Shown one piece after another: positions 37,006 through 55,284 of a stretch of DNA of 64,000 nucleotides. The stretch's first letter is position 1. Each line of letters opens with the position of its first letter. The notes beneath the pieces were generated by a model that was not told where the DNA came from, made no database searches, and saw nothing but the letters and a program-made list of their open reading frames with translations. Origin of the DNA: Rhodanobacter sp. Soil772 (GTDB lineage: Bacteria > Pseudomonadota > Gammaproteobacteria > Xanthomonadales > Rhodanobacteraceae). The DNA lies in assembly GCF_001428385.1 (NCBI RefSeq), contig NZ_LMSK01000002.1, positions 340,704-404,703 on the forward strand. Reading direction: 5' to 3'. The translations under genes and the position numbers were made by a program.

Positions 37006-38241
37006 TCAGGCGGTATCGCGCCGCGACTGCCGCGCCACCACGCTGGTGGCGGTGAGGTCGCCGGTGACGTTACCCAGCGTGGCCAGCGCGTCGGGAATGG
37101 TGTCGACCGCCAGCATCAGGCCCAGCGGGCTGAGCGGCAGGCCCATCGCCTGCGCCACCGGCAGGTTGGTGGCGATGAAGGTGACCTGGCCCGGCAGGCC
37201 GACCGAGCCCAGGCTGATCACCACCGCGAGCAGCGCGCCGGCGAGCAGCTGCGCGGTGCCGAGATCGATGCCGTAGGCCCAAGCGATGAACACCGCCGAG
37301 GTCACGTATTGCACCGGGCTGGTCAGGCGGAACAGGCTCACCGCCATCGGCAGCACCAGCGCCGCGACCTGTTTGGGATAACCGAGCCGACGGTCGGCGC
37401 TCTCCAGCATCGCCGGCAGCGAGGCCAGCGACGACTGCGTGCTGATCGCCACCACCTGCGCCGGCACTAGCGCCAGCGCGAAACGGCGCAGCCGCTCGCC
37501 GCCGAAGATCACCGCCAGCGGCAGCATCATCACGGTGACCGCCAGGTACAGCAGGCACTCGACCAGCACGTACACGCCGAGCGCGCTGAGCATGCCCAGG
37601 CCCGAGCGCGCGCACACGGAAAGGATCAGCGCGAACACGCCCAGCGGCGCAATCCACAATACCCAGCGCACGATCACGATCATCGCGTCGGCGATCGCCT
37701 GGAAGAATTCCATCAGCAGCGCGCGCCGCGCCGGCGCGATCCGGGTCAGCGCGAAACCGAGGAACAGTGCGAACACCACCAGCGGCAGCATCGCGCTCTG
37801 CGCCGCGGCCATGATCGCGTTATTCGGCACGATCGCCACCAGCGTGTCGATCCAGTTCGGCGCCGCCTGCGCGGCTGCGGGCACGCTGGCGTGATCGAGC
37901 GCGGCGACCAGCGCCGGATTGTGCGGGAACAGCGAGAACACCAGCGGTGCGGCCAGCGCCGCGAACAGCGCGCCGCCGGTCAGCACCACGATGAACACCA
38001 CGATCGCGCGTCGCGCGATGCGGCCCGAGGCGGCCGCGTCGGTGGCGGTGTTCACGCCCACCACCACCAGCGCCAGCACCAGCGGCACCACGGTCATCTG
38101 CAGCGCGTTGAGCCACAGCTTGCCGACCGGCTGCGCCACGTTCGCCACCTGCAACGCCACGGTTTCGTTCCAGCCGGCCAGCAGCAGGCCGATCAGCGCG
38201 CCGGCGGCCAGCCCGGTCAGGACCCGGGTGGTCGCACTCAC
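37006..38241 (-). CDS. Dicarboxylate/amino acid:cation symporter (DAACS family)
   Basis: A 411-residue inner-membrane symporter of the GltP/DctA family, importing glutamate, aspartate or C4-dicarboxylates with H+ or Na+. The start is GTG 38241 (VSATTRVLTGLAAG) overlapping the upstream stop as GTGA. Family text includes LQMTVVPLVLALVVVGV, the hairpin ISTQSSLASLPAML (Ser-rich HP1), and GLPGQVTFIATNLPVAQAMG (HP2-like) with VDTIPDALATLGNVTGDL. It ends the minus-strand arm of the murein-peptide cluster and could take up released glutamate; that role is inferred. Confidence 0.88.
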   Translation of the reverse strand: MSATTRVLTGLAAGALIGLLLAGWNETVALQVANVAQPVGKLWLNALQMTVVPLVLALVVVGVNTATDAAASGRIARRAIVVFIVVLTGGALFAALAAPLVFSLFPHNPALVAALDHASVPAAAQAAPNWIDTLVAIVPNNAIMAAAQSAMLPLVVFALFLGFALTRIAPARRALLMEFFQAIADAMIVIVRWVLWIAPLGVFALILSVCARSGLGMLSALGVYVLVECLLYLAVTVMMLPLAVIFGGERLRRFALALVPAQVVAISTQSSLASLPAMLESADRRLGYPKQVAALVLPMAVSLFRLTSPVQYVTSAVFIAWAYGIDLGTAQLLAGALLAVVISLGSVGLPGQVTFIATNLPVAQAMGLPLSPLGLMLAVDTIPDALATLGNVTGDLTATSVVARQSRRDTA

Positions 38242-39017
38242 CGCGCGGCATCCGTGGCGGCCAGCACCGGCAGTTGCCAGTCGGCACGCAGCCGCTCGTA
38301 CTCGGCCTGCGGCAGCAGCACGAAGACCGGGTGCTGCTGCGGCTTCAGCCAGGCCAGCAGCGATTGCATCACCGCCGGCGTCATCGCGGTGCAACCGGCG
38401 GTGGCGTCGCTGGGCGACTTCCACAGATGCGCGAAAATGCAGCTGCCGCCCTGTGGCGCCGCCTGCGCGTTGTGCTCGATCACGAAGCCGAGCCGGTAGC
38501 GCTGGTCGCCGTTCGCATGCAGGTCGCGCCGCATCGGCTCGGTGGAACCCTTCACCGCATCGGCGCCGACCACGTTGGCGTCGACGATGCGGTTGTACTG
38601 CGCCGTGCCGCTGACATCCATGCAGTAATCGGTGGCGGTGAGCGCGCGGTACGGCAGCGCGGTGGCCGCGTGGGCGGCGTAGCCGAACGCCTCGCCGATG
38701 CGGAATACGCCGGCCGGGCTGCGGTTGTCGCCCTCGCGCTTGAGCGGCCCGTCATGCTGCGGCGCGTTCAGGCCCAGCCCCCAACCGGCGCCGTTCTTGC
38801 CGATGGTCACCGGCGTGGCGGCGCGCACTTCATGCCAACCGTCGCCGTCGCGCGCGAACGTGCGCAGGGTGCCATGGTTCGCGTTCCAGCCGGCGGTGGT
38901 GACCAGCACCAGCTGGCGGGCGTCGTGCCAGGGCGTGGTCGCGGCGCCGGCATGCGCGGCTCCGGCAAGCGTGATGGCAAACGTCAGCAGGGCAAGGGTG
39001 CGGCGGCGAACAGTCAT
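38238..39017 (-). CDS. Exported YkuD (L,D-transpeptidase-like) domain protein
   Basis: A 259-residue protein with a Sec signal (MTVRRRTLALLTFAITLAGA, cleavage near AHA). The YkuD-type catalytic segment GGSCIFAHLWKSPSDATAGC ends in C209, the nucleophile. This branch is usually annotated as an L,D-transpeptidase or L,D-carboxypeptidase acting on murein stem peptides. Activity is not proven; the long WGLGLNAPQHDGPLKREGDN section is typical of the branch. Its stop overlaps the symporter start. Confidence 0.8.
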   Translation of the reverse strand: MTVRRRTLALLTFAITLAGAAHAGAATTPWHDARQLVLVTTAGWNANHGTLRTFARDGDGWHEVRAATPVTIGKNGAGWGLGLNAPQHDGPLKREGDNRSPAGVFRIGEAFGYAAHAATALPYRALTATDYCMDVSGTAQYNRIVDANVVGADAVKGSTEPMRRDLHANGDQRYRLGFVIEHNAQAAPQGGSCIFAHLWKSPSDATAGCTAMTPAVMQSLLAWLKPQQHPVFVLLPQAEYERLRADWQLPVLAATDAAR

Positions 39018-39087
39018 CGGCTTTCCATCCAGTAGTTGAGCATCACGCAACAAGTGTGGGAGTCGGCCAGGGGTGTTGCTCTTGCCT

Positions 39088-39103
39088 CGATTCCCGATTC
39101 CCG
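39088..39103. repeat. Heptamer repeat at the regulator 3' end
   Basis: CGATTCCCGATTCCCG, two units of the AATCCCG-type heptamer, immediately before the regulator stop codon at 39107-39109. Confidence 0.6.
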
Positions 39104-39106
39104 TGG

Positions 39107-39964
39107 TTACGGCTCCAGCATCAGCTGGATGCGGTCGAGGTTGGCCAGCAGTTGCGCGTGGCGATCGTCGTGGCCTTCGCACAACTGCACGAACACGCCG
39201 TCGAGCAGGTGCTGCAGCGCCGACTGGTACAGCAGCGGCTGGATGTACGGCAATTCGTCGTGCGCCGACACCACCAGGGAGAGATCGGCCAGCGTGCGCA
39301 GCGGGTTCGCGGTGTGCCGCGTCACCGTGATCACCTGGCCGCGACGCTCGCGGAAGTAGCGGGCAATCTTGCACAGCGCCGGATGGTTGCCGTGCTCGGA
39401 GAACACCAGCAGCACGTCGCCGGCGCTGGCTGCGGAGACGTTCGCGGTCATCCGCGCGGTGTCGAAATTGTGCACGGTGAGGATGCCCAGCAGCGACAGC
39501 TTCAGCGCGAAGCCGCGCGCGTGGATGTCGTCCTCGCCCAGCCCGATGATGAACACCTTGCCGGCACGGCCGGCCTGCTCGATCGCGTCGGCCACGGCCT
39601 GCAGGGTTTCCGGCAGATTGATCAGCCGGGTCGCCTCCTCGGCCTCGGACTTGCGCCGCCACAGGTTGCCGGCGGACGAGCCGCCACCTTCGCCGCCGCT
39701 CGCCGCCGCGACCTGCGGCGTGTCGCCGTTGTCGGCGCGCGCGATCGCCTCGCCGACCGAATACTTCAGGTCCGGATAGCCCTTGAAGCCCAGCTTCTGG
39801 GTGAACTTGACCACGCTGGACTGGCTGATCCCCAGCGCATTGGCCAGTTGCTGCGAAGAGTAGTCGCGCAGCAGCTGCGCGTTCTCCAGGATGAAGTCGG
39901 CGATGCGCCGCTCCACTGCCGACATCTGGTCGCGTTCCGAACGGATTTTGACCAGCGGCGACAT
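39107..39964 (-). CDS. MurR/RpiR family transcriptional regulator
   Basis: A 285-residue regulator with an N-terminal RpiR-type HTH (ADFILENAQLLRDYSSQQLA, then LGISQSSVVKFTQKLGFKGY) and a C-terminal SIS sugar-phosphate-binding domain (about 125-255: FIIGLGEDDIHARGFALKL). In E. coli, MurR of this family senses MurNAc-6-phosphate. The gene is coupled to the dipeptide epimerase (ATGA) inside a murein-peptide cluster, so I infer that it controls this locus and senses a murein breakdown product. A Gly/Ser-rich linker joins the domains. Confidence 0.88.
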   Translation of the reverse strand: MSPLVKIRSERDQMSAVERRIADFILENAQLLRDYSSQQLANALGISQSSVVKFTQKLGFKGYPDLKYSVGEAIARADNGDTPQVAAASGGEGGGSSAGNLWRRKSEAEEATRLINLPETLQAVADAIEQAGRAGKVFIIGLGEDDIHARGFALKLSLLGILTVHNFDTARMTANVSAASAGDVLLVFSEHGNHPALCKIARYFRERRGQVITVTRHTANPLRTLADLSLVVSAHDELPYIQPLLYQSALQHLLDGVFVQLCEGHDDRHAQLLANLDRIQLMLEP

Positions 39965-41061
39965 CAGGCTTCGATCCTCTCCAATCCGCGGATCTCGCGG
40001 ATGCCCAGGCCTGGTGCATCCGTCACCGAGATTTCCGACTCGTTGAAGATTACCCCACCGTCGACCGGATTGAACTGGCACAGCGACGGGCCGTCCAGGT
40101 CGATCTTGGTGATCACGTTGGACTTCGCCACCGCCACGTGCACCGCGGCGGCCACGCTGATGCTGGTTTCCAGCATGCAGCCGATCATGCACTCGATGCC
40201 GTGCATGCCGGCGATGTCGGCGATGCGGATCGCGTTGGAGATGCCGCCGGTCTTCATCAGCTTGATGTTGATGATGTCGGCCGCGCGCAGGCGGATCAGC
40301 TCGATCACCTCCATCGGGCCGAACACGCTCTCGTCGGCCATCACCGGGGTGTGCACGCGCTCGGTGACGTAGCGCATGCCGGCCAGGTCACGCGCCTTCA
40401 CCGGCTGCTCGATCAGCTCCAGCTTGATGCCGGCGTCCTCCAGCGTCTGCAGCGCGTACACCGCCTGCTTGGCGGTCCAGCCCTGGTTCGCGTCCAGCCG
40501 CAGCAGCGCACGCCCTTCCACCGCCGCGTAGATCGCCTTGACCCGCTCGATGTCGACGCCGATGTCCTTGCCCACCTTGATCTTCAGCGATTCGAAGCCG
40601 CGTTCCACCGCGGAGACCGAGTCGGCCACCATCTTGTCGATGTAGTCGACGCTGATGGTGATGTCGGTGGTGATCACCGGGTCGCCGCCGCCGAGCAGCT
40701 TGTACAGCGGCGCGCTGTAGAGCTGGCCCCACAAGTCGTATACCGCGATCTCCACCGCCGCCTTGGCGCTGGTGTTCTTCTCCATCGAAGACTGGATCAG
40801 CTGAGTGAGGTGGTTGAGGTCGGCGATGTCCTGGCCGATCAGCCGCGGCGAGATGTAGTGGCGGATCGCGTCGATGATCGAGCCGTGGGTGTCGCCGGTG
40901 ATCACCGCGGTGGCCGGCGCCTCGCCGTAACCGACCTGGCCCGAGTCGGTGTGCACCATCACCACGATGTCCTCGACCAGGTTGACCGTGCGCAGCGCCG
41001 TCTTGAACGGGGTCTTCAGCGGCACCCGCAGCATGCCGAACTGGATGTCGGTGATTTTCAT
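39964..41061 (-). CDS. Dipeptide epimerase (L-Ala-D/L-Glu type)
   Basis: An enolase-superfamily enzyme of 365 residues. It has the catalytic lysines K160 and K162 (LKIKVGK) and K267 (INIKLMKTGG), metal ligands D190, E218 and D243, and the DxD pair D321/D323 (KIDLDGP) that marks dipeptide epimerases, whose Asp residues bind the substrate N-terminus. It should convert L-Ala-D-Glu from murein to L-Ala-L-Glu in the cytoplasm. The start is ATG 41061 (MKITDIQFGM). NlpC/P60 and permease neighbours support the murein-peptide role. Confidence 0.92.
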   Translation of the reverse strand: MKITDIQFGMLRVPLKTPFKTALRTVNLVEDIVVMVHTDSGQVGYGEAPATAVITGDTHGSIIDAIRHYISPRLIGQDIADLNHLTQLIQSSMEKNTSAKAAVEIAVYDLWGQLYSAPLYKLLGGGDPVITTDITISVDYIDKMVADSVSAVERGFESLKIKVGKDIGVDIERVKAIYAAVEGRALLRLDANQGWTAKQAVYALQTLEDAGIKLELIEQPVKARDLAGMRYVTERVHTPVMADESVFGPMEVIELIRLRAADIINIKLMKTGGISNAIRIADIAGMHGIECMIGCMLETSISVAAAVHVAVAKSNVITKIDLDGPSLCQFNPVDGGVIFNESEISVTDAPGLGIREIRGLERIEA

Positions 41062-41112
41062 GGGCAAGCCTTCATGGAATCTGTGTCCTTTTTCTTTTTG
41101 GTGCAGGCGCGC

Positions 41113-42516
41113 TCAGTGGCGGATGCGCACGATGCTGGTCATGCGGTCGACAAAGGTCTGCTTGTCGTTGAACAGCAGCGGCAGCAGCGGGGTTACCGAC
41201 ACCGCGTTGAGCTTGATCCGCGCCTTGCTGCCGTCGGCCTTGCGGTAACTCATGCCGCCGACGTCGTGGATCACGTACGGCTGGCCGTGCAACTGGCCGA
41301 TCACCATCATCACGTGGCCGGGGATGTAGACCAGGTCGCCCACCTGCAATTCGTGCGCGGCCTTGAGGCGCTCCTCGCGGCTATCCTTCGCGGTGAACGC
41401 GCGGTGTTCCAGCGCCGGGCTGATCGCCTGCTTGCTGGTGTTGCGCGGCATCTGCACGCCCATGCTGCGGTACACGTCGGAAACGAAACCGCTGCAGTCG
41501 CGGCCGTCGTAGGCGTGGCCCCAGCCATAGCGCTCGCCGAGGAACTTGAACGCCTGGCCGATGAGGTTGGCGCGGGTCAGCGGCAGGTAGTCGGCGGCGG
41601 TGTCGGTGTTCTTCTGCAGCAGCGCCGGGGTGAACGCCAGCGAGCCGTCGGCCTGGCGCAGCGGCAGTTCGATCACGTGCGCGGCGTACGGCGTCTGGCC
41701 GTTGACCGGCTGATCCGGCGGCAGCTTCGTCAGCAGCGGCACGCGCGTGCCCATGTCCAGCTGCAATTGCGATACCGCCGGCTGCTCGCGGGTGAACACG
41801 GTGCGCTCGACGGCGCCGGTGATCACCCGGTACGGGGTCTTGTCGGCGTAGCCGAACACCTGCGCGGCGCTGCCTTCGGCCACGTTCTCTTTCTCGGTCC
41901 AGGCGGCGTAGCGCGGACTGACCACGAACAGCCACTGGCCGTCGGCACTGGCGTGCACGATCGCCACCGGCGTGCCGGGGAACTCGGCCGTTTCCTGGAA
42001 GCGGTCGATGTCGGTGTCGCCCTTTTCGCTGAACACGCGCAGCGTGGTGGGGAACGTGCGCAGCGCAGCGCGGCGCACCACCAGGCCGTAGCGTGTCTTC
42101 TGCTGCGCGGGAATCGCATCGAGCGCGAGGTTGCCGACCACGGCATCCAGCGTGGCGGCCGGCACCGGCTGGCCGTCGACGTCGAACAGCGGGCGATTCG
42201 GCCGCTCGGACAGCGCCTCGATCCAGCCGGCGACCTGCTCGCGGCTCAGGGCTTTCGGCAACGCGTGCAGGTCGTGCATCGACGGATCGACCTGCAGCAG
42301 CTTCGCGTTCTGCGCCTCGATCGCGGCGCGGTCGAGGATCACCCGATCGGGCTGCGCCTGCAGGCCGATCCAGAACGCGGGCGTGAGCTGCGCCTCGCCG
42401 ACGCCGAGCACGCCGGACGGCGGCACGGTCAACGCATCGTTCGCCTCGCGCGCCTGCAGCGGTGCGCCGGCGAAGGCGAGCGCAAGCACGGTGACAGCAA
42501 GCAGGGGAAGTCGCAT
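41113..42516 (-). CDS. Exported SH3/NlpC-P60 endopeptidase
   Basis: A 467-residue exported C40 peptidase (signal MRLPLLAVTVLALAFAGAPL, cleavage after QA). The middle has SH3b-like domains (about 145-290); the C-terminal NlpC/P60 domain has catalytic C341 (GRDCSGFVSDVYRSMG), H401 (GHVMMVIG) and the His of VIHDVGG. Relatives such as YkfC cut gamma-D-Glu-mDAP bonds when L-Ala is free, producing L-Ala-D-Glu, the substrate of the adjacent epimerase. Periplasmic location is inferred from the signal. Confidence 0.9.
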   Translation of the reverse strand: MRLPLLAVTVLALAFAGAPLQAREANDALTVPPSGVLGVGEAQLTPAFWIGLQAQPDRVILDRAAIEAQNAKLLQVDPSMHDLHALPKALSREQVAGWIEALSERPNRPLFDVDGQPVPAATLDAVVGNLALDAIPAQQKTRYGLVVRRAALRTFPTTLRVFSEKGDTDIDRFQETAEFPGTPVAIVHASADGQWLFVVSPRYAAWTEKENVAEGSAAQVFGYADKTPYRVITGAVERTVFTREQPAVSQLQLDMGTRVPLLTKLPPDQPVNGQTPYAAHVIELPLRQADGSLAFTPALLQKNTDTAADYLPLTRANLIGQAFKFLGERYGWGHAYDGRDCSGFVSDVYRSMGVQMPRNTSKQAISPALEHRAFTAKDSREERLKAAHELQVGDLVYIPGHVMMVIGQLHGQPYVIHDVGGMSYRKADGSKARIKLNAVSVTPLLPLLFNDKQTFVDRMTSIVRIRH

Positions 42517-42542
42517 CGTCTTGGTCCTTTCTTGAAACCGCA

Positions 42543-43694
42543 TCAGGTGGCCGCCAGCGTGGACAGGATCGTCGCCACCAGCAGGCCGAAGCCGGTGCCC
42601 AGGATGTAGCCGAGCAGCGCCAGCAGGATACCGACCGGCACCAGTGCAGCCGAATAGCTGGCCGCCAGGATCGGCGTGGCCGCCACGCCGCCAATATGCG
42701 CCAGCGAGGAGATCCCGCACAGGTACAGGTCGAAGCGGAAAAGTTTGGCGCAGCCGACCAGCAGCACCGCGTGGATCGCGATGATGGTGACGCCGCACAG
42801 CAGGTACAGCGGCGCCGCGGCGATGCCCTGGAAGTTGCTCTGCGAAGCCAGCACCGCCACCACGCTGATCAGCATCGCGCTGGAAATCGTGCTGGCGCCG
42901 GGGAACTCCGCCAGCGGCGTGTGCGCCACCACCAAGCCGAAGCCGGTGGCCAGCAGGATCGTCCAGGTGGTCGCGCTGATCATGCCGGAAACCGGCAGCC
43001 AGCCGGCCAGCCAACCCGACAGCGCCGCCACCGCCAGCGCCATGCCCAGCCACAGCAGCACGCTGTCGTAGGTGGTCGGCGCCTTGGCTTTCACCGGCGC
43101 CAGCGGGATGTCGCCGCTGGACTTCGCCCGGGTCCAGCGGTTGAACGCCGGCGCCAGCCGCGCCACCGAGAACAGCACCACCACCCACATCGAGTAACCC
43201 AGCGCATCGGTCAGCAACGACATCGCCAGGTACGTGTCGGACATGCCGATCGCCTGCTTCACCGCGATCATGTTCGCGGTGCCGCCGACCCAGCTGCCGG
43301 AGAGCGCGGCCAGCGGCTGCCAGTCGTTGCCGGGCAGCCAGTGGCGATAGACCAGGTAGGTGCCGATGAAGGCCACGAACAGGCTCAGCGAGGTGCAGGC
43401 GAATACGCCCAGCACGCGCGGGCCGAGCCGCCAGATCGCGCGCAGGTCGCAGTTGATCATCAGCAGGAACAGCAGGGCCGGCACCATGTGCGAGACCAGC
43501 ATCGACTGCGCCGCCCTGATTTCCGCGTTGACCTGCCACAGCCCGGAAACCGCCAGCGCGGTGACCAGCAGGTAGGTCAGCACGATCGGCGGCAGCACCG
43601 AAAACACCTTCCAGCCGAAGCGGCGTTCCACCGCCGGAAACAAACCGGCGACCAGCAACATCAGCGCCAGGTAGGGCCAGACCGTGTGGATCAC
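42543..43694 (-). CDS. DUF819 family membrane protein (putative permease)
   Basis: A 383-residue membrane protein with about ten or more helices, of the DUF819/YjcL family. Recognisable text: MVPALLFLLMINCDLRAIWR, ALSGSWVGGTANMIAVKQAI and SSLAHIGGVAATPILAASYS, two conserved Gly/Ala-rich loops. Function is not established for the family. As first gene of the arm with the endopeptidase and epimerase, it is a good candidate for the importer of L-Ala-D-Glu or related murein peptides; this is inference. Confidence 0.85.
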   Translation of the reverse strand: MIHTVWPYLALMLLVAGLFPAVERRFGWKVFSVLPPIVLTYLLVTALAVSGLWQVNAEIRAAQSMLVSHMVPALLFLLMINCDLRAIWRLGPRVLGVFACTSLSLFVAFIGTYLVYRHWLPGNDWQPLAALSGSWVGGTANMIAVKQAIGMSDTYLAMSLLTDALGYSMWVVVLFSVARLAPAFNRWTRAKSSGDIPLAPVKAKAPTTYDSVLLWLGMALAVAALSGWLAGWLPVSGMISATTWTILLATGFGLVVAHTPLAEFPGASTISSAMLISVVAVLASQSNFQGIAAAPLYLLCGVTIIAIHAVLLVGCAKLFRFDLYLCGISSLAHIGGVAATPILAASYSAALVPVGILLALLGYILGTGFGLLVATILSTLAAT

Positions 43695-43860
43695 ATGTAT
43701 CCCCTCGTGGATCGTTCGCGGGCATTCGCAGGCTGGCTGGTTTCCACCATCAAGGAATAGCTGATTCTTATCGACTTCGATTGAAGCATAAATTATTGAC
43801 CGGCATTTGCAAGCGTGTTACACAGCGGTTTCAGGGGAATCGTTGCGGGGACGTTTGTCG
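43695..43860. promoter_or_regulatory. Divergent regulatory region of the murein-peptide cluster
   Basis: This 166 bp gap drives both arms. Around 43761-43800 it is markedly AT-rich for this genome and holds TAAATTAT (43789-43796), a possible -10, and the small palindrome CTTC-GATT-GAAG (43775-43786), a candidate operator for the RpiR-type regulator. I could not confirm a second copy of this site. Confidence 0.4.
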
Positions 43861-45399: not shown

Positions 45400-45426
45400 C
45401 CAACCGGCAGCTTTTCATAAACATGG

Positions 45427-45443: not shown

Positions 45444-45457
45444 AGGGAGATGGGGAA

Positions 45458-48457: not shown

Positions 48458-48472
48458 TCGTCCTCCCCGATC

Positions 48473-48505
48473 GCGGCCCGCCCGAGTGGCGGGCCGCTCT
48501 TTTTT
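48473..48505 (+). terminator. Rho-independent terminator after the TonB receptor
   Basis: GCGGCCCGCC (48473-48482), CGAGT loop, GGCGGGCCGC (48488-48497), then TCTTTTTT. A textbook terminator that separates the first two genes of the plus arm from the six downstream. Confidence 0.93.
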
Positions 48506-48540
48506 CCGGTACCACCGCACCAACTACTGATAACGAGCCC

Positions 48541-49845
48541 ATGTCCACGCAGATGACGAGCCGCCCCGCAGCGCAGGAAACCGCCCGGGAAACGGATAGT
48601 GCCCATGGCATGTTCGACGGCGTCGACCTGCGGCAACTGGCCGAACACATTCCCACCCCATTCCATGCCTATTCCGCCAGCGCGATCAGGCAGCGCATCG
48701 ACGAGCTGCAGGCCGCATTGGCCGGCCTCGATGCCACCATCTGCTTCGCGGTCAAGGCCAACCCGAACCTCGCCATCCTGCAGCTGATGGCCAGCGCCGG
48801 CGTCGGCGCCGACATCGTCTCGGTCGGCGAACTGCGCCGCGCCCTCAACGCCGGCATGCCGGCCGAGCGCATCGTGTTCTCCGGCGTCGGCAAGAGCGCC
48901 GATGAAATCGCCGGCGCGCTGAACGTCGGCATCATGCGCTTCAACGTCGAATCGCTGGACGAGCTGCACACCCTGCAGCGCGTGGCCCGCGCGCAGCAGG
49001 TGACCGCGCGCGCCGCCGTGCGTATCAACCCCGACGTGGACGCGCACACCCACGCGAAGATCTCCACCGGCAAGTCGGAGAACAAGTTCGGCGTCAGCAT
49101 CGACGAGGCGCGCCGCTGGTTCGCCGAACGCAGCCAACTCACCCACGTACAACTCGACGGCCTGCACGTGCACATCGGCTCGCAGATCCTCAGCGTCGAA
49201 CCGTTCCGCCTCGCGCTGCAGCGGGTCGCCGCGTTCTGGCGCGAACTCGAGCAGGCCGGCCATCCGATCCACAGCATCGACGTCGGCGGCGGGCTGGGCG
49301 TGTGCTATCGCGCTGGCGTGGATCAGCCGGTGGCCGCAGCCGACTACGTCGGCGTGATCCGCGAGGCGCTGGCCGACTACCGCGGCAAGCTGCTGCTGGA
49401 GCCGGGCCGCTACCTGGTCGCCGAGGCGGGCGTGCTGCTGACCCGGGTGATCCGCGTCAAGCCCGGTATCGAACGCACCTTCCTGGTGCTGGACGCGGCG
49501 ATGAACGACCTGCAGCGGCCCAGCCTGTACGACGCCTGGCACGACATCGTGCCGGTAGCGGACGAGCTGCGCCCGATGACCACCTACGACATCGTCGGTC
49601 CGGTCTGCGAGACCGGCGACACCTTCGCCCGCGCACGCGAACTGCCCGAATGCGCGGCCGGCGACCTGTTGCTGATCAAGGCCACCGGCGCGTACGGTAC
49701 GTCGATGGCCTCCACCTACAACTCGCGGCCGCTCGCCGCCGAGGTACTGCTGCAGCGGGGCCGCTACGCCGTGGTGCGGCGGCGCCAGCACTTCGAGGAA
49801 ATGATCGCCGGCGAACAGCCGGCCCGGAACTGGGAAACGCCATGA
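48541..49845 (+). CDS. lysA: Diaminopimelate decarboxylase
   Basis: A fold-type III PLP enzyme of 434 residues that converts meso-diaminopimelate to L-lysine. K72 in FAVKANPN binds PLP. HVHIGSQI, SIDVGGGLGV, LLEPGRYLVAEAG and the CETGD motif at C356 (PVCETGDTFAR), with YGTSMASTYNSRP, mark DAP decarboxylase over ornithine or arginine types. To my knowledge biosynthetic LysA in Xanthomonas is fused to aspartokinase; this stand-alone copy lies in a murein-degradation operon. A catabolic role, using mDAP freed from murein peptides, is my inference. It overlaps the next gene by four bases. Confidence 0.88.
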   Translation: MSTQMTSRPAAQETARETDSAHGMFDGVDLRQLAEHIPTPFHAYSASAIRQRIDELQAALAGLDATICFAVKANPNLAILQLMASAGVGADIVSVGELRRALNAGMPAERIVFSGVGKSADEIAGALNVGIMRFNVESLDELHTLQRVARAQQVTARAAVRINPDVDAHTHAKISTGKSENKFGVSIDEARRWFAERSQLTHVQLDGLHVHIGSQILSVEPFRLALQRVAAFWRELEQAGHPIHSIDVGGGLGVCYRAGVDQPVAAADYVGVIREALADYRGKLLLEPGRYLVAEAGVLLTRVIRVKPGIERTFLVLDAAMNDLQRPSLYDAWHDIVPVADELRPMTTYDIVGPVCETGDTFARARELPECAAGDLLLIKATGAYGTSMASTYNSRPLAAEVLLQRGRYAVVRRRQHFEEMIAGEQPARNWETP

Positions 49846-51053
49846 ACACGACTGCCCGCCTTGCCCTCCTCGCCGCCTTGAGCTTCGCCGGCACGCTGCC
49901 CGCGCAAGCGCAGCAGGACCCACCAGTCACCATCGACACCCACGTCGACATCCCCTTCAACTACATGGGCGAGCCGCGCTTCGACGTCGGACACGACACC
50001 CGCCTGCTGGTCGACCTGGGCAAGATGGAACATGGCGGCCTGAACGCGGCGTTCTTCGTGGTCTGGGTGCCGCAGCACAAGCTCGACGCCGCCGGCTACG
50101 CCAAGGCGGTGAAACAGGCCAGCCAGAAATACGACGGCATCGGCCGCATGCTGATGATGTATCCCGACCGCATCCGCCTGGCCACCACGCCCGAACAACT
50201 GATGGCCAACCGCAAGGCCGGCCTGCTCTCGGCCACGATCGAGATCGAGAACGCCTACTCGCTCGGCCACGACATCCGCCGCCTCGACGCCGCGTTCGAT
50301 CGCGGCGCGCGCTCGGTCGGCCTGGTCCACGTCGGCAACAACGACTTGTGCACCAGCTCGCTGCCCGATACCGAGCATGGCGAGCCGGCGATGAACAGCG
50401 CCGGCGACACCGGCATGAGCGACTTCGGCCGCGCCGTGGTGAAGCGCGCCAACCAGCTCGGCATGCTGGTCGACATCTCGCACGCCTCGGACAACTGCGT
50501 GCGCGACGCGCTCAAGGCGTCCAGCACGCCGCTCATCGCCTCGCACTCCGGCGCCCGCGCCGTACTCGACCACCCGCGCAACCTGCCCGACGACCTGCTG
50601 CGCGCGATCGCTGCCAAAGGCGGCGTGATCGACGCCGTCGCCTACAAGGAATTCCTGAAGAAGGATCCGGGCCGCGAAGCCGCAGAAAAGAAACTGCAGA
50701 ACGCCATCGCCAAACAGGCCGGCGAGAAGGAATACGACAGCGACAGCGACGACTACCGGCCCGCGATGGAAGCGGGCATGGCCGAGATCCAGAAGAAGTA
50801 TCCGCTGGCCACGCTGGACGACTACGTGAAGCAGATCCGCCACATGGTGAAGGTCGCCGGCATCGACCACGTCGGCCTCGCCTCCGACTTCGACGGCGGC
50901 GGCGGCATCACCGGCTGGAAGGACGCCAGCGAAACCCGCAACGTCACCGCCGCCCTGCGCAAGGCCGGTTTCAGCGACGCCGACATCGCCAAGCTGTGGG
51001 GCGGCAACCTGCTGCGCGTGTGGGGCGAGGTCGAGCGCCATGCGCAGCACTGA
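49842..51053 (+). CDS. Exported M19 (renal-type) dipeptidase
   Basis: A zinc dipeptidase of the membrane dipeptidase family with a Sec signal (MNTTARLALLAALSFAGTLP, cleavage after AQA). Metal ligands are H34 and D36 (IDTHVDIPFN), a Glu in ATIEIENAYSL, and His in DISHASDNC and ASHSGARAV; HVGLASDFDGG follows. M19 enzymes accept L-X or D-X dipeptides, including some with a C-terminal D-residue, so it could process stem-peptide fragments in the periplasm. 403 residues, translationally coupled to lysA. Confidence 0.9.
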   Translation: MNTTARLALLAALSFAGTLPAQAQQDPPVTIDTHVDIPFNYMGEPRFDVGHDTRLLVDLGKMEHGGLNAAFFVVWVPQHKLDAAGYAKAVKQASQKYDGIGRMLMMYPDRIRLATTPEQLMANRKAGLLSATIEIENAYSLGHDIRRLDAAFDRGARSVGLVHVGNNDLCTSSLPDTEHGEPAMNSAGDTGMSDFGRAVVKRANQLGMLVDISHASDNCVRDALKASSTPLIASHSGARAVLDHPRNLPDDLLRAIAAKGGVIDAVAYKEFLKKDPGREAAEKKLQNAIAKQAGEKEYDSDSDDYRPAMEAGMAEIQKKYPLATLDDYVKQIRHMVKVAGIDHVGLASDFDGGGGITGWKDASETRNVTAALRKAGFSDADIAKLWGGNLLRVWGEVERHAQH

Positions 51054-51057
51054 CGCC

Positions 51058-52659
51058 ATGCTCCCTCCCCTGCGACCGAAGGAAGTCCCTGTGGGGCAAC
51101 GCAGGGGAGGGTTGGGGTGGGGTGCTCTTGCGCTCCTGCTCCTGCTCGTCGCCCCGGTCGCCACCGCCCAAACTGCCAACCCCGCGTACGACAAGATCGT
51201 CGACGCCACCATCGCCCGCTATCACCTGCCCGGCATCGCCGTGGGCGTGATCGAGAACGGCCAGGTCGTCTACACCCGCACAGCCGGCGAAACCATCGCC
51301 GGATCAGGCGAGAAGATCACCCCGCGAACCCTGTTCAAGATCGCCTCCAACAGCAAGGCGATGACCACCGCCCTGCTCGGCCGGCTGGTCGACCAGGGCA
51401 AGCTGCGCTGGGACGATCCGGTGACGAAGTACCTGCCGCAGTTCCGCATGAACGACCCGTGGGTCACCGCCAACATGCGCGTGGCCGACCTGCTCACCCA
51501 CTCCAGCAGCCTGCCCGAAGGCGGCGGCGACCTGATGCTGTGGCCGGAGCCGAACGCGTTCACCCGCGCCGACATCATCCACGGCCTCGCCTTCATCAAG
51601 CCCGGCTACAGCTTCCGCTCGCAGTACCAGTACGACAACCTGCTCTACGTGGTCGCCGGCGAAGTCGCCGCCGCCGCGGGCGGCGCGCCGTACGAGACAC
51701 TGATGCGACGCGAAGTGTTCGAGCCGCTGCACCTGGATCGTTGCCAGGTCGGCGCGTGGAACCGCGACACGGTGGGCGACGTGGCCACGCCGCATCGCCG
51801 CGACGGCGGCCGCAACGTGCCGATCCCCGAGGCCACGGCCATCCCAGCAATCACCTCCGCGCCGGCCGGCGGCATCCGCTGCGACCTCACCGACATGCTG
51901 AGCTGGGCACGCAACTGGCTGGTGCCGACCCACGCGCAGTTGCAGTGGCTGTCGCCGGTACAGCGCGACGTGCTGCAGGCGCCGCACATGCTGATCCCGG
52001 TTTCCAAACAGCGCCGTGCGTGGGACAACACGCACGTGATGGCCTACGGCTACGGCTGGCGCATGGCCGACGTCGACGGCGAATGGAGCGTGTGGCACAC
52101 CGGCACGCTGAACGGCATGTACTCGATGCTGGCGCTGCTGCCGGACCGCAAGAGCGGCTTCGTGTTCATGATCAACGGCGAGGCGGACGACGCGCGCACC
52201 GTGCTCGGCGAGGTGCTGATGAAGCACTTCACCGCGCCCGGCGACAGCCGCGACGTGCGCTGGTACGCCGACGCGCTGGAGCAGCAGGCGAAGCAGCGAC
52301 CGGCCGCTTCGAGTGCACCGGATACCTCGGCGCAGCGACCGGCCAGCACCGCCGAACTGGCGCGCTGGAGCGGGCAGTATCGCGACCCGTGGTTCGGCGA
52401 CATCACCCTGTGCCCGCGCGATGGAAAGATGCATTTCGCCGCCGCGAAATCGCCGACGCTGGCCGGCACGGTGATGCGCCTGGGCGACCGCTACCTGGTG
52501 CACTGGGACGACGGCGAGCTGGATGCGTGGCTGGATTTCCACGCGGCCACCGGCGACCAGCCGATTACCCTGCGCATGGCCAAGCTCGACCCGCTGGGCG
52601 ATTTCAGCTCCGACTACGAAGACCTGGATTTCCAGCGCATCGGGACCTGCCACCCATGA
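51058..52659 (+). CDS. Exported serine hydrolase (beta-lactamase/class C PBP fold)
   Basis: A DD-peptidase/beta-lactamase-fold serine hydrolase. SxxK is S97-N-S-K100, YDN follows in QYQYDNLLYVV, and the third motif is WHTGTLNG. A C-terminal DUF3471-like domain lies at about 425-530. The start is uncertain: ATG 51058 gives 533 residues and no ribosome site; GTG 51091, five bases after AAGGAAG, gives MGQRRGGLGWGALALLLLLV, a clean signal peptide, and 522 residues. A dispersed repeat (51063-51122) makes up this N-terminal coding stretch. Probable substrate: D-amino-acid peptides of murein. Confidence 0.85.
   Translation: MLPPLRPKEVPVGQRRGGLGWGALALLLLLVAPVATAQTANPAYDKIVDATIARYHLPGIAVGVIENGQVVYTRTAGETIAGSGEKITPRTLFKIASNSKAMTTALLGRLVDQGKLRWDDPVTKYLPQFRMNDPWVTANMRVADLLTHSSSLPEGGGDLMLWPEPNAFTRADIIHGLAFIKPGYSFRSQYQYDNLLYVVAGEVAAAAGGAPYETLMRREVFEPLHLDRCQVGAWNRDTVGDVATPHRRDGGRNVPIPEATAIPAITSAPAGGIRCDLTDMLSWARNWLVPTHAQLQWLSPVQRDVLQAPHMLIPVSKQRRAWDNTHVMAYGYGWRMADVDGEWSVWHTGTLNGMYSMLALLPDRKSGFVFMINGEADDARTVLGEVLMKHFTAPGDSRDVRWYADALEQQAKQRPAASSAPDTSAQRPASTAELARWSGQYRDPWFGDITLCPRDGKMHFAAAKSPTLAGTVMRLGDRYLVHWDDGELDAWLDFHAATGDQPITLRMAKLDPLGDFSSDYEDLDFQRIGTCHP
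51063..51122 (+). repeat. Dispersed G-rich repeat inside a signal-peptide coding region
   Basis: CCCTCCCCTGCG (51063-51074) is perfectly inverted as CGCAGGGGAGGG (51100-51111), followed by TTGGGGTGGGG. It is a diverged copy of the repeat at 9278-9314. It lies within or at the very start of the serine hydrolase gene. Confidence 0.7.
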
Positions 52660-53411
52660 ACAACCCCATCACTACCACCGGCAAGCGGGCTCCGGCGAAA
52701 GCCGGATATCTGCTTGCGTTTGGCTTGCTCGCCACCGTCGGCGGAATCGCCCACGCGGATCAACCACCCGATCTTTCGCCCGCCAGGACCGCCGCCGAAG
52801 CCAACCTGGTCGACATCCGCACGCTGGTGCCGGACATCGCCGAGGACATCAAGTACGCCGGCAGCGACAATTTCATGGGCACGCCGGCGGATGGCTATGA
52901 CGCGTCGAAATGCCTGCTGCTGCGCCCGGTCGCCGAAGCGCTGGCGAAGGTCGAGCACGAGCTGCGCGCGCAGCACCGGCGCCTGAAGATCTGGGACTGC
53001 TACCGCCCCGCCCGCGCGGTGGCGCACTTCGTGCGCTGGGCGCACGACCTCGCTGACCAGCGCACCAAGGCGCAGCACTACCCCAGGCTGGACAAGTCGA
53101 CCCTGTTGAACGGCTACATCGCGGAAAGCTCGGGCCACAGCCGCGGCGCCACCATCGACCTCACCCTGCAGCAATGCGCCGCCGACGGCAGCCATTGCCA
53201 GCCGCTGGACATGGGCACGGATTTCGACTTCTTCGACGTGCACGCGCATACCGACACGCCCGACGTCACCGCGCAGCAACACGCGAACCGCCAGTTGCTG
53301 CGCGACGCGATGCAACGCGAAGGCTTCCGCAACTATCCGATGGAATGGTGGCACTACACCCTCACGCCGGAACCGACGCCGCACACGATCTACGACGTGC
53401 CGGTGCAATGA
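52656..53411 (+). CDS. Exported D-Ala-D-Ala dipeptidase (VanX/DdpX family)
   Basis: A 251-residue zinc dipeptidase that splits D-Ala-D-Ala. The family motif SSGHSRGATIDLT gives Zn ligands H161 and D168; E230 and H233 (MEWWHYT) complete the site, and R117 (DCYRPARA) is the substrate-stabilising Arg. A signal peptide (about 14-34, cleavage after AHA) predicts a periplasmic enzyme, unlike cytoplasmic VanX of resistance clusters. No VanH, VanA or VanRS genes are near, so a nutritional role on murein-derived D-Ala-D-Ala is more likely than glycopeptide resistance. Confidence 0.92.
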   Translation: MNNPITTTGKRAPAKAGYLLAFGLLATVGGIAHADQPPDLSPARTAAEANLVDIRTLVPDIAEDIKYAGSDNFMGTPADGYDASKCLLLRPVAEALAKVEHELRAQHRRLKIWDCYRPARAVAHFVRWAHDLADQRTKAQHYPRLDKSTLLNGYIAESSGHSRGATIDLTLQQCAADGSHCQPLDMGTDFDFFDVHAHTDTPDVTAQQHANRQLLRDAMQREGFRNYPMEWWHYTLTPEPTPHTIYDVPVQ

Positions 53412-53439
53412 CCGCACCACGAACAGGGGGAATTCCGCC

Positions 53440-54489
53440 ATGTCAAAACTGCTTGCTGGTCTCGCACTGACCTTGCTGCTCGGCGGCTGCGCCTCCGGCA
53501 CCAAGCCGGTCGACCCGACCGACGCACTGATGCAGCGCTACACCGGCGACGTTCCCGGCGCCTCGCTGCTGGTGCTCAAGGACGGCAAGCCGATCGTCCG
53601 CCGCAGCTACGGCCTGGCCAATCTCGAGGACGAAGACAAGGCCACGCCGGCCACCAACTACCGGCTCGCCTCGGTGACCAAGCAGTTCACCGCCGCCGCG
53701 ATCCTGCTGCTGGCCGAAGGCGGGCGCCTCAACCTGGACGATCCGGTGCGCCGCTGGCTGCCTTCGCTGCCGGAGACGACGACCACGGTCACGCTGCGCC
53801 AGCTGCTCACGCATACCGGCGGCCTGGTCGACTACGAGGACCTGATTCCGCCCGGCACCACCGAACAAGTCAGCGACAACGACGTGCTGCGCCTGCTGTC
53901 CGCCACGCCGAAGACCTATTTCGCACCGGGCACGGCGTACCGCTACAGCAACTCGGGCTACGTGCTGCTCGGCCTGGTGGTGGAGCGCGCGTCCGGCATC
54001 AGCCTGCCGCTGTATCTGCAGCAGCGCATCTTCCAGCCGCTGCACATGGACCACACGGTGCTGTATGAGCGCGGCGGCCCCGACGTGGCGGATCGCGCCT
54101 ACGGCTACAGCGAGGAAAACGGCAGCTGGACGCGCACCGACCAGAGCGTCACCAGCGCCACCCGAGGCGACGGCGGCATCTATGCATCGGTCGACGACCT
54201 GGCGAAGTGGGACGCCGCGCTGTACGACAACCGCCTGCTCAGCGCCGCCTCGCGCAAGCTCGCCTTCAGCCCGCACGTGAAGGTCACCGGCGAGCCGTAC
54301 GAGACCAGCTACGGCTACGGCTGGCGCATCACCGGCGACACCGTGTGGCATTCCGGCGAGAGCATCGGCTTCCGCAACGTGATCGTGCGCTGGCCGAAAC
54401 AGCACCTCACCGTGATCCTGCTCAGCAACCGCAACGAGCCGGAGCCGTACCGCACCGCGCTGGCGATCGCCGCGCCGTACCTGCAGTGA
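53440..54489 (+). CDS. Lipoprotein serine hydrolase (beta-lactamase/class C PBP fold)
   Basis: A 349-residue lipoprotein (lipobox LLGGC, C17). SxxK is S78-V-T-K81 (LASVTKQFT), YSN is in YRYSNSGYVLL and the third motif is WHSGESIG. It is a paralogue of the serine hydrolase at 51058, without the DUF3471-like tail. Probable DD-carboxypeptidase/endopeptidase or D-aminopeptidase on murein peptides; which cannot be told. It starts 28 bp after the VanX-type gene with a GGGGGA ribosome site. Confidence 0.86.
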   Translation: MSKLLAGLALTLLLGGCASGTKPVDPTDALMQRYTGDVPGASLLVLKDGKPIVRRSYGLANLEDEDKATPATNYRLASVTKQFTAAAILLLAEGGRLNLDDPVRRWLPSLPETTTTVTLRQLLTHTGGLVDYEDLIPPGTTEQVSDNDVLRLLSATPKTYFAPGTAYRYSNSGYVLLGLVVERASGISLPLYLQQRIFQPLHMDHTVLYERGGPDVADRAYGYSEENGSWTRTDQSVTSATRGDGGIYASVDDLAKWDAALYDNRLLSAASRKLAFSPHVKVTGEPYETSYGYGWRITGDTVWHSGESIGFRNVIVRWPKQHLTVILLSNRNEPEPYRTALAIAAPYLQ

Positions 54490-54510
54490 TGGAGCGAGGA
54501 GCCGTCAGCG

Positions 54511-55284
54511 ATGCGTGATCCGTTTTCCCTGCCCCGCCTGCTGCGCCGCGTGGTCCCGCTGGCGCTGCTCGCGCTGCTCGCCGCCTGCGCACCGCTGCCG
54601 CCGCGCAATCCGCTGGCGACCTGGGTGCCATCGCCGAACCACGACATCCGCCGGCCGGTGCTGATCGTGCTGCACTACACCGACCAGCACTCGGTGCAGG
54701 AAAGCCTGGACACGCTGCGCACGAAGAACAGCGGCGGCCCGGTGAGCTCGCATTACCTGATCGGCGCGGACGGCCACATCTACCAGCTGGTGTCCGACCA
54801 GTTGCGCGCGTGGCATGGCGGCCCCGGACACTGGGGCACGATCACCGACATCAACTCCGCCTCGATCGGCATCGAGCTGGACAACGACGGCGCCACGCCG
54901 TTCGCGCAGCCGCAGATCGACAGCCTGTTGCGCCTGCTCGCCGACCTCACCGACCGCCTGCACATCCCGCGCACGCAGATCGTCGGCCACGAGGATTTCG
55001 CGCCCACGCGCAAGGACGACCCCGGCCCGCTGTTCCCGTGGCCGCAACTGGCTGCAGCCGGCTTCGGGCTGTGGCCACAAGGCGCGCTGATCGATCCACC
55101 CGCCGGCTTCGATCCGTGGATGGCGCTGGCCGTGGTCGGCTACCCGCTGGAAGACCGCGCCGCCGCCGTGCGCGCGTTCCACCACCACTTCCGCGGCATC
55201 GAGGGCGATGCGCTGGACGATGAGGACCTGCGCATCCTGTACAACCTTGCGCAACGGATCGAATCCGGCAGCGGCGGGGACTGA
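54511..55284 (+). CDS. Lipoprotein N-acetylmuramoyl-L-alanine amidase (AmiD-like)
   Basis: A 257-residue outer-membrane-type lipoprotein (lipobox LLAAC, C26) with an Amidase_2 domain. Zn ligands are H55 (IVLHYTDQHS), the His of IVGHEDFAP and the Asp of KDDPGPLFPW, plus the catalytic Glu in SIGIELDNDG. A C-terminal helical domain with FDPWMALAVVGYPLEDRAAA may bind peptidoglycan. It resembles E. coli AmiD, which frees stem peptides from MurNAc and anhydroMurNAc in the periplasm. Last gene of the arm; it would start the degradation pathway. Confidence 0.92.
   Translation: MRDPFSLPRLLRRVVPLALLALLAACAPLPPRNPLATWVPSPNHDIRRPVLIVLHYTDQHSVQESLDTLRTKNSGGPVSSHYLIGADGHIYQLVSDQLRAWHGGPGHWGTITDINSASIGIELDNDGATPFAQPQIDSLLRLLADLTDRLHIPRTQIVGHEDFAPTRKDDPGPLFPWPQLAAAGFGLWPQGALIDPPAGFDPWMALAVVGYPLEDRAAAVRAFHHHFRGIEGDALDDEDLRILYNLAQRIESGSGGD

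What the first reader, a model, noticed from the sequence alone, without database searches (positions are those of the whole stretch)
38238..55284. Two-armed locus for complete use of murein stem peptides
Seen: twelve or so genes in two divergent arms encode an AmiD-like amidase, NlpC/P60 endopeptidase, YkuD protein, two DD-peptidase-fold serine hydrolases, exported VanX-type dipeptidase, M19 dipeptidase, dipeptide epimerase, DAP decarboxylase, DUF819 permease, Oar-like TonB receptor, transglutaminase-like protein and a MurR/RpiR regulator. Known: each family has members acting on murein peptides. Inference: together they turn murein tripeptide to pentapeptide into Ala, Glu and Lys, with uptake and control in one locus. 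AmpG, Mpl and Opp of the E. coli route are absent here.
Basis: partly seen in the sequence, partly recalled or inferred. Interest (0 to 1): 0.85.

Follow-up and report, generated by a model that had tools for sequence, protein, structure and literature searches.

The report
Locus for eating cell-wall peptides
A bacterium of the Rhodanobacter kind carries a conserved set of fourteen genes, with its own regulator, that most likely breaks bacterial cell-wall peptides down to ordinary amino acids; it suggests a job for an uncharacterised transporter family and for a sugar-type regulator that no longer looks able to bind a sugar phosphate.

Summary
Of 80 named genomes sampled by DUF819 alone, 80 have NLPC, 76 EPI, 70 TGL, 70 RpiR within the stretch, but 19 the flanking trpG. 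Distant homologues sit in peptidoglycan islands with NamZ, MurQ or LD-carboxypeptidase.

New here: (1) Locus DUF819s form one clade, every row beside murein genes (21 of 24 sampled through EPI): the best candidate L-Ala-D-Glu permease. (2) A promoter palindrome goes with RpiR: 60 of 70 loci with it, 0 of 10 without. (3) In 108 of 108 scored locus RpiRs the phosphosugar loop is lost, though L052 keeps it; the signal is probably not MurNAc-6-P. (4) No glutamate racemase match, but MurL: EPI is the only D-Glu-to-L-Glu route I found. (5) LysA here is a second copy.

Corrections: AmpG and Mpl are elsewhere in the genome; NlpC/P60 lacks YkfC's defining aspartate. Activities, substrates and regulation are inferred.

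The parts
37006..38241 (-).
   Evidence: PF00375 266.9 bits; best NCBIfam relative GltP, 145.2 against cut-off 638; in 63 of 80 named loci
38238..39017 (-). YkuD: exported L,D-transpeptidase-fold protein (candidate L,D-carboxypeptidase/transpeptidase)
   Evidence: PF03734 27.1 bits, cut-off 23.4; Cys of GCT and His of AHLW 48 of 48 rows; start; signal peptide read by eye
39107..39964 (-). RpiR: HTH_6 + SIS regulator without the phosphosugar loop
   Evidence: PF01418 78.8 bits, PF01380 48.6 bits; loop analysis
39964..41061 (-). EPI: cytoplasmic L-Ala-D/L-Glu (dipeptide) epimerase
   Evidence: best PDB match 1jpm/1tkk, L-Ala-D/L-Glu epimerase, 348.2 bits over 1-354; Lys, Asp, Glu and DxD residues 60-61 of 61 rows
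41113..42516 (-). NLPC: exported SH3_6 + NlpC/P60 peptidase (gamma-D-Glu-mDAP endopeptidase type)
   Evidence: PF12913, PF00877; [quoted passage not shown] Cys342, His402, His418 in the numbering, 55 of 55 rows; start
42543..43694 (-). DUF819: clade-M permease, candidate importer of L-Ala-gamma-D-Glu
   Evidence: PF05684 251.9 bits; tree; 80 of 80 named loci sampled by it hold NLPC
43752..43769 (.). Operator candidate: AAGGAATAGCTGATTCTT palindrome in the divergent promoter
   Evidence: only genome hit of the 18-letter pattern at up to 1 mismatch; conserved with RpiR
43861..45399 (+). TGL: exported transglutaminase-like cysteine peptidase, substrate unknown, core member
   Evidence: PF01841; Cys, His, Asp 41 of 41 rows; 41 of 200 genomes of the order with a match of 45% identity or more
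45458..48457 (+). OAR: Oar-like TonB-dependent receptor, likely muropeptide/peptide uptake over the outer membrane
   Evidence: CarboxypepD_reg, Plug, barrel domains; in 67 of 80 named loci, in 65 right after TGL
48473..48497 (+). Intrinsic-terminator-like hairpin between OAR and LYSA
   Evidence: 10 G-C pairs and a T run; similar hairpin found after OAR in 61 of 101 loci by a crude script
48541..49845 (+). LYSA: monofunctional DAP decarboxylase, second copy in the genome
   Evidence: TIGR01048 over cut-off; the other copy is a LysC-LysA fusion elsewhere
49842..51053 (+). M19: exported membrane-dipeptidase family (L,D-dipeptidase type)
   Evidence: PF01244 297.6 bits; best PDB 2rag, 3b40 dipeptidases
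51058..52659 (+). SERH1: exported S12/beta-lactamase-fold serine hydrolase + DUF3471 (DD-peptidase type)
   Evidence: PF00144, PF11954; Ser and Lys of SxxK, YDN and HTG 41 of 41 rows
52656..53411 (+). VANX: exported M15 D-Ala-D-Ala dipeptidase type
   Evidence: PF01427; best PDB 1r44 D-alanyl-D-alanine dipeptidase, 151.2 bits; H, D, E, H 50 of 50 rows; start
53440..54489 (+). SERH2: lipoprotein S12 serine hydrolase (DD-peptidase type)
   Evidence: PF00144; PDB relatives Flp, alkaline D-peptidase, DD-carboxypeptidases; Ser, Lys, YSN, HSG 20 of 20 rows; lipobox LLGGC read by eye
54511..55284 (+). AMID: lipoprotein Amidase_2 (N-acetylmuramoyl-L-Ala amidase)
   Evidence: PF01510; best PDB AmpDh2, then AmiD 2bh7; lipobox LLAAC read by eye

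Best explanation
A dedicated catabolic and scavenging locus for peptidoglycan stem peptides, parallel to the AmpG recycling route. (2) In the periplasm AMID frees the peptide from MurNAc; SERH1 and SERH2 trim D-Ala; VANX splits D-Ala-D-Ala; NLPC cuts gamma-D-Glu from mDAP; M19 (or YkuD) splits mDAP-D-Ala; TGL does an unknown peptidase step. (3) The clade-M DUF819 protein carries L-Ala-gamma-D-Glu across the inner membrane; SDF takes up released amino acids. (4) Inside, EPI turns L-Ala-D-Glu into L-Ala-L-Glu, which a general dipeptidase splits; the extra LysA turns mDAP into lysine. (5) The RpiR protein binds one palindrome between the arms and controls both; having lost the phosphosugar loop, it probably senses a peptide or amino acid from the path. 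Rationale: this lineage makes D-Glu with MurL, reported as L-to-D only, and no racemase was found, so EPI is the only route back to L-Glu that I found.
For: Families and conserved active-site residues. Co-conservation: 63 of 200 genomes of the order (own included) hold an EPI orthologue at 49% identity or more; the 62 others were fetched and read. Independent sampling by DUF819, presence within the stretch: NLPC 80, EPI 76, TGL 70, RpiR 70, YkuD 68, OAR 67, SDF 63, SERH1 62 of 80, flanking trpG 19 of 80. EPI or DUF819 relatives in islands with NamZ, MurQ, SSF, LD-carboxypeptidase, AMID. Operator: 37 of 39 loci with RpiR against 0.37 expected from shuffles, 7 of 23 without; in the named set 60 of 70 against 0 of 10; one hit of the 18-letter form in the genome. 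In Lysobacter daejeonensis (L029/L195), where the right arm lies downstream of SDF, both arms keep a copy. Second LysA against a LysC-LysA fusion. No MurI match, MurL present; MurL one-way (PMC5808125 passages).
Against: No expression, growth or biochemical data. NLPC lacks the YkfC Asp256 (Asn in 52 of 55 rows). Many loci of family f2 lack DUF819, LYSA, M19 and SERH2, so these are not indispensable. The largest DUF819 clade (31 rows) is not near these families. No cytosolic L-Ala-L-Glu dipeptidase in the locus. M19, TGL, OAR and SDF specificities are not known. The operator is missing at 2 mismatches in 10 of 70 RpiR loci, and a second 2-mismatch site lies at 31181 of the window, outside the locus. 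The RpiR of L052, in an EPI locus, keeps Ser in the phosphate loop. Lack of MurI is nearly order-wide (3 of 200 over cut-off), so it does not explain which genomes have the locus.
Confidence: 0.75

Rival explanations
1. Own-wall remodelling or recycling: the enzymes serve turnover of the cell's own murein, not nutrition from outside.
For: AmiD, YkuD and DD-peptidase folds are also wall-remodelling families; recycling genes AmpG, AnmK and Mpl exist in the genome.
Against: The locus has a TonB-type receptor, a catabolic epimerase, a second LysA and its own regulator and candidate operator; many genomes of the order lack it (EPI orthologue in 63 of 200), so it is not housekeeping.
Confidence: 0.3
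2. General peptide or protein utilisation locus: Oar-like receptor, transglutaminase-like protease, M19 and S12 hydrolases digest varied peptides, and the epimerase handles other dipeptides.
For: Dipeptide epimerases vary in substrate (recalled); a canonical DUF819 pair lies next to a Dpp5-like dipeptidyl peptidase (L084), hinting at a wider dipeptide role.
Against: VanX type, AmiD type, SH3-NlpC/P60 and DAP decarboxylase are families of murein metabolism; distant homologues sit with NamZ, MurQ and LD-carboxypeptidase; EPI is closest to an L-Ala-D/L-Glu enzyme with its residues kept.
Confidence: 0.12
3. Antibiotic protection: VanX-type dipeptidase and beta-lactamase-fold hydrolases lower sensitivity to wall-active drugs.
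For: Fold matches to VanX and class C beta-lactamases.
Against: Scores are far below the NCBIfam cut-offs seen (class C 82.0 and 91.7 against 415; VanX 195.9 against 320); the proteins look exported, whereas VanX acts in the cytoplasm (recalled); no vanH or D-Ala-D-Lac ligase gene is among the genes I annotated between 35247 and 58414.
Confidence: 0.03
4. The order is kept only by slow rearrangement in related genomes; the genes do not work together.
For: Most loci come from two families; trpG and trpD flanks are kept in 19 and 18 of 80.
Against: Locus genes are kept far more often than the flanks; the DUF819-NLPC-EPI trio recurs in Steroidobacter, Povalibacter, Peristeroidobacter and a further family (L192, L194, L197, L091); rearranged loci still hold the genes together (L187, L195); operator and RpiR go together.
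Confidence: 0.03

Closest known systems
B. subtilis ykfABCD beside dpp (murein tripeptide use)
   Same: Epimerase (1jpm/1tkk, closest solved relative of EPI) and an NlpC/P60 gamma-D-Glu-diamino acid endopeptidase; same reaction order (PMC2954226 passages)
   Different: Here NlpC is exported and lacks Asp256; secondary permease instead of neighbouring ABC transporter genes; added amidase, DD-peptidases, VanX type, M19, LysA, TonB receptor, RpiR
E. coli MpaA-YcjG-PepD route and AmpG-Mpl recycling
   Same: Same chemistry from tripeptide to L-Ala + L-Glu (PMC2954226 introduction passages)
   Different: No MpaA or Opp (Opp uptake recalled) in the locus; cleavage probably periplasmic; AmpG and Mpl exist elsewhere in this genome
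MurNAc catabolic islands with NamZ and MurQ (L091, L107) or MurQ and LD-carboxypeptidase (L055)
   Same: Related EPI and NLPC (L091, L055), DUF819 (L091, L107), RpiR (L107), AMID (L055) occur there
   Different: The window has the peptide half only; no MurQ over cut-off in its genome; its RpiR lost the phosphosugar loop
MurR/NanR-type RpiR regulators
   Same: HTH_6 + SIS architecture
   Different: Phosphate-contact Ser/Thr mostly replaced by acidic residues and His/Gln/Leu (contacts from PMC12713135 passages)

Membership tests
L-Ala-D/L-Glu epimerase (enolase superfamily) | Lys, Asp, Glu catalytic set and the DxD that binds the dipeptide amino group (roles recalled) | tested here: met
   K160 61 and K162 60 of 61; D190, E218, D243, K267, D321 and D323 61 of 61 rows; aligned to 1jpm
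L-Ala-D/L-Glu epimerase NCBIfam equivalogs | Score over the curated cut-off (NF041118 500; NF011708 343) | tested here: not met
   251.9 and 111.4 bits
YkfC-type NlpC/P60 | Catalytic Cys/His/His | tested here: met
   55 of 55 rows
YkfC-type NlpC/P60 | Asp256, binding the free L-Ala amine | tested here: not met
   Position is Asn in 52 (window included) and Asp in 3 of 55 rows
YkfC-type NlpC/P60 | Tyr118 of the SH3b1 domain | not tested
   No alignment of the SH3 domain to YkfC was made
MurR/RpiR phosphosugar sensor | HTH_6 + SIS domains | tested here: met
MurR/RpiR phosphosugar sensor | Ser/Thr phosphate loop (SpNanR Ser135, Ser179, Ser181, Thr184; PMC12713135 passages) | tested here: not met
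   Of 108 scored rows: Ser179 equivalent Ser in 104; Ser181 position Ser in 0, Thr in 1; Thr184 position Ser/Thr in 0; GxG+2 position Asp in 108. L052, left out of that count, keeps Ser at the 181 and 184 positions
VanX D-Ala-D-Ala dipeptidase | Zinc ligands and catalytic Glu (H, D, EWWH) | tested here: met
   50 of 50 rows, aligned to 1r44
VanX D-Ala-D-Ala dipeptidase | NCBIfam equivalog cut-off NF033115 | tested here: not met
   195.9 against 320 bits
DAP decarboxylase LysA | TIGR01048 cut-off and PLP Lys | tested here: met
   469.9 bits over 297.9; Lys of FAVKANP 17 of 17 rows
AmiD/AmpDh2 amidase | Amidase_2 domain with its His/His/Asp zinc site, and lipoprotein signal | tested here: met
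   H55, H160 and D170 18 of 18 rows (roles recalled); lipobox by eye
DUF819 permease | PF05684 over the gathering score | tested here: met
   251.9 bits against 27; substrate not testable with these tools

The most novel reading that the evidence does not exclude
[quoted passage not shown] In a lineage without a recognisable glutamate racemase the dipeptide epimerase would be the obligatory way to regain L-Glu from its own or a neighbour's wall.
Probability: 0.45. Interest if true: 0.75.

Novelty: new variant of a known kind. Interest (0 to 1): 0.62.

Why it matters
It would give a Gram-negative, periplasm-first counterpart of the ykf pathway, a substrate for a DUF transporter family, a ligand class for RpiR regulators that have lost the phosphate loop, and a reason for a dipeptide epimerase in bacteria that make D-Glu by MurL. 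It makes testable whether Rhodanobacter-like Lysobacterales feed on the walls of other bacteria.

Tried and rejected
Considered and rejected: DUF819 in general as a murein permease. The phylum scan gave 33 of 348 genomes over cut-off; 36 stretches covering the over-cut-off places other than G000 and G022 were fetched (four weaker places dropped). Five of the 36 have another locus family in the stretch (L091, L102, L107, L112, L113), so the claim is limited to clade M and, weakly, to the divergent group L102, L112, L113, L071. My models found no family, DUF819 included, in L114. I tested whether lack of MurI goes with the locus: MurI over cut-off in 3 of 200, none with the EPI orthologue, against 63 of the other 197: not informative (one search gave p about 0.55, with 62 entered in place of 63). 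A tRNA-Glu call at 43126-43202 lies inside DUF819 and no Rfam family reached its gathering score there: rejected. The sigma-70 scan gave 1 promoter-like site against 1.4 expected, and terminator-like sites 14 against 10.3: no evidence as a whole. A hairpin after OAR is found by my script in 61 of 101 loci and not in 40, so the right arm may be two transcripts in some. Class-wide EPI search: 18 of 321 at E up to 1e-40, 14 of them at 30-36% identity, not followed. AMID and SERH2 counts are lower bounds because loci end at the flank. The G-set and the named set share genomes (L029 and L195 carry the same sites on contigs of one length), so the two counts are not independent. Structure prediction of TGL and DUF819 was never possible.
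Full report
What is there. The window lies at G000:C2:340704-404703 of a 3.57 Mb, 99.98% complete genome. The best TGL relatives that bear an organism name are Rhodanobacter proteins, and contigs of same-genus genomes match named Rhodanobacter records in length (82,082 and 918,039 bases). The naming of the genus is therefore an inference. The left arm, minus strand, reads DUF819, NLPC, EPI, RpiR, YkuD, SDF in the direction of transcription. The right arm, plus strand, reads TGL, OAR, LYSA, M19, SERH1, VANX, SERH2, AMID. All frames are open; families come. Export signals were read by eye: YkuD, NLPC, TGL, OAR, M19, SERH1 and VANX look like they have signal peptides, SERH2 and AMID have lipoboxes; I see none in EPI, RpiR and LYSA.

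Co-conservation. In 200 genomes of the order, 112 have an EPI-like match, of which 63 (the window's own included) are orthologues at 49% identity or more; TGL has 47 matches, 41 of them at 45% or more. I fetched the 62 other EPI orthologues plus 8 further stretches. The two-armed order recurs in most EPI loci of the window's family f1 and, with losses of DUF819, LYSA, M19 or SERH2, in family f2. Exceptions: several loci have EPI and NLPC without TGL (for example L049, L059-L066), L058 has EPI alone, two TGL places (L073, L074) stand alone and L072 keeps TGL, YkuD and SDF without EPI. To avoid sampling by EPI I scanned named genomes with the DUF819 alignment (best 80 of 401 kept, so the nearest ones). 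Presence anywhere in the stretch: NLPC 80, EPI 76, TGL 70, RpiR 70, YkuD 68, OAR 67, SDF 63, SERH1 62, VANX 55, LYSA 48, M19 46, SERH2 32, AMID 5 of 80 (the last ones cut by the flank), against trpG 19 and trpD 18 as flank controls. The list includes Rhodanobacter, Frateuria, Dyella, Luteibacter, Dokdonella, Lysobacter, Thermomonas, Steroidobacter and Povalibacter.

Murein context outside the main form. In family f8, L055 has EPI, NLPC, AMID and part of an Oar-type receptor with two LD-carboxypeptidases (S66), an SSF symporter, MurQ, a kinase of the BcrAD_BadFG family and two 'Gate' membrane proteins, and no DUF819. Clustering of unlabelled frames puts similar genes in six to eight loci; only L055 was scanned. 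In another family of the class, L091 has DUF819-NLPC-EPI-YkuD followed by SSF, a MurQ-like SIS protein and NamZ; L107 has DUF819, Ala racemase, SSF, MurQ, NamZ, M14 and RpiR. L091 and L107 were found through DUF819, not through EPI.

Transporter. A tree of 59 DUF819 rows gives a clade of 24 (96/88) with the window, the locus DUF819s and L052, L091, L107; every row is beside murein genes, but 21 of the 24 had been fetched through EPI. A second clade of 31 has no locus family in its stretches (L111 has a trpG); one pair of it (L084) lies next to a Dpp5-like dipeptidyl peptidase (451.3 bits, under the 900 cut-off). A small divergent group lies near EPI-like or M15 genes (L113, L112, L102, L071). 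The tree tool warned of long branches, so deep joins are unsure. In print, DUF819 has been modelled as a CPA/AT transporter fold (PMC8396727, passages), and an M15-DUF819 gene pair is mapped in Neisseria meningitidis (PMC12671195, passages). The search for 'DUF819' and 'transporter' gave 6 papers; I saw passages of these two and the listing of the rest, and no substrate.

Regulation. A palindrome near GGAATA-NN(N)-TATTCC lies in the divergent promoter. In the first set 37 of 39 loci with RpiR have it at up to 2 mismatches (0.37 expected from 60 shuffles each) and 7 of 23 without (two of these, L041 and L042, are cut by the contig end before RpiR would come). In the named set: 60 of 70 with RpiR, 0 of 10 without; about 3.6 per kb of divergent region against 0.014 per kb elsewhere (23 sites in 1.61 Mb). 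Seven of the 10 RpiR loci without a site are distant ones (DUF819 identity 56-58%); L127, L129 and L166 are not. In the window it is AAGGAATAGCTGATTCTT at 43752-43769, the only genome hit of that pattern at up to one mismatch, with none for the reversed control. At the looser setting the window has one more site, at 31181, outside the locus. In L029/L195 (Lysobacter daejeonensis), where the right arm lies downstream of SDF, a site precedes DUF819 and another precedes the frame that clusters with the TonB receptor of L048.

The RpiR has lost the phosphosugar site. In S. pneumoniae NanR the phosphate is held by Ser135, Ser179, the Leu180 backbone, Ser181 and Thr184, and the loop is said to be highly conserved (PMC12713135, passages). 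Aligned to solved RpiRs, the window reads GLGEDD and FSEHGNHP there. Of 109 rows (39 + 70, genomes shared between the sets; one row a gap), Asp145 and Glu190 are kept in 108, the Ser181 position is never Ser (Thr once), and the Thr184 position is His, Gln or Leu in 108; the Ser179 position is still Ser in 104. The MurQ/NamZ-linked L107 keeps GGS and SESGST. Against the rule, L052, an f8 EPI locus whose RpiR is only 34% identical, keeps SFSGQS. That the ligand is a peptide or amino acid is my inference.

Metabolic frame. The genome has AmpG beside AnmK, and Mpl, a LysC-LysA fusion (NF006515, 1209.3 bits over 802) followed by MurL (NF041275, 782.7 bits over 700) and a MurD-family ligase cut by the end of my stretch, no glutamate racemase match (controls ring in 10 of 14) and no MurQ over cut-off. 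MurL is reported to act L-to-D only (PMC5808125, passages). Hence LYSA here is a spare copy fit for mDAP salvage, and EPI the only D-Glu-to-L-Glu route I found. D-Glu aminotransferase and other routes were not searched. MurI over cut-off is rare in the whole order (3 of 200), so this is a trait of the lineage and not a marker of the locus.

Enzyme caveats. EPI is closest to the L-Ala-D/L-Glu epimerase 1jpm/1tkk with its residues kept but scores under the NCBIfam equivalog cut-offs. NLPC resembles 3m1u and has Asn where YkfC has Asp256, a residue described as essential for YkfC specificity (PMC2954226, passages); it may accept other murein peptides. TGL is a core gene with a Cys-His-Asp set in 41 of 41 rows and no meaningful solved relative by sequence. 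Its step is unknown.

Print. Searches in the held open library listed no description of this locus in Lysobacterales. The lists were capped (25 of 47, 6 of 6, 10 of 10, 10 of 30, 15 of 29, 12 of 75, 2 of 2, 15 of 466 and 12 of 20 papers), and most were seen as titles and abstract starts only.

Noticed in passing
L044, L048, L060, L062, L063 (genus g56 of family f2): In five g56 loci (and L059 for one of two genes), frames clustering with L048 proteins that carry X-Tfes_XVIPCD plus peptidoglycan-binding or VgrG3-like domains (type IV secretion effectors against bacteria, recalled) lie beside the murein-peptide genes (only L048 scanned): a possible 'kill and eat' coupling.
   Followed up: partly
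L055:1821-2974 and similar frames in seven further loci: Two 'Gate' membrane proteins stand next to LD-carboxypeptidase in EPI loci, most of which lack DUF819: a candidate alternative murein-peptide transporter.
   Followed up: partly
L010:3-1223 and frames in 11 further loci: A DAO-family FAD oxidoreductase (Pfam on L010 only) lies beyond SDF in ten loci and near YkuD in L027 and L066, perhaps for D-Ala; its NCBIfam hit is weak.
   Followed up: partly
43126-43202: ARAGORN calls a tRNA-Glu on the minus strand inside the DUF819 gene; no Rfam family reaches its gathering score, so probably false.
   Followed up: yes
48473-48497: Strong terminator-like hairpin after the TonB receptor gene, with similar ones in 61 of 101 loci: the right arm may be two transcripts.
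   Followed up: partly
L034:15968-17326 and frames in 12 further loci: A 2-oxoadipate dioxygenase/decarboxylase (HGLS; lysine catabolism recalled) gene lies near the locus in family f2 (only L034 scanned).
   Followed up: no
L084:6976-12209: Two canonical DUF819 genes in tandem beside a Dpp5-like dipeptidyl peptidase.
   Followed up: partly
G007, G018, G181 (family f8): A divergent Asp/Glu racemase homologue (42-50 bits to TIGR00067) lies about 5-7 kb from EPI.
   Followed up: no
31181-31194: A second, 2-mismatch match to the operator word outside the locus; its neighbours were not looked at.
   Followed up: no
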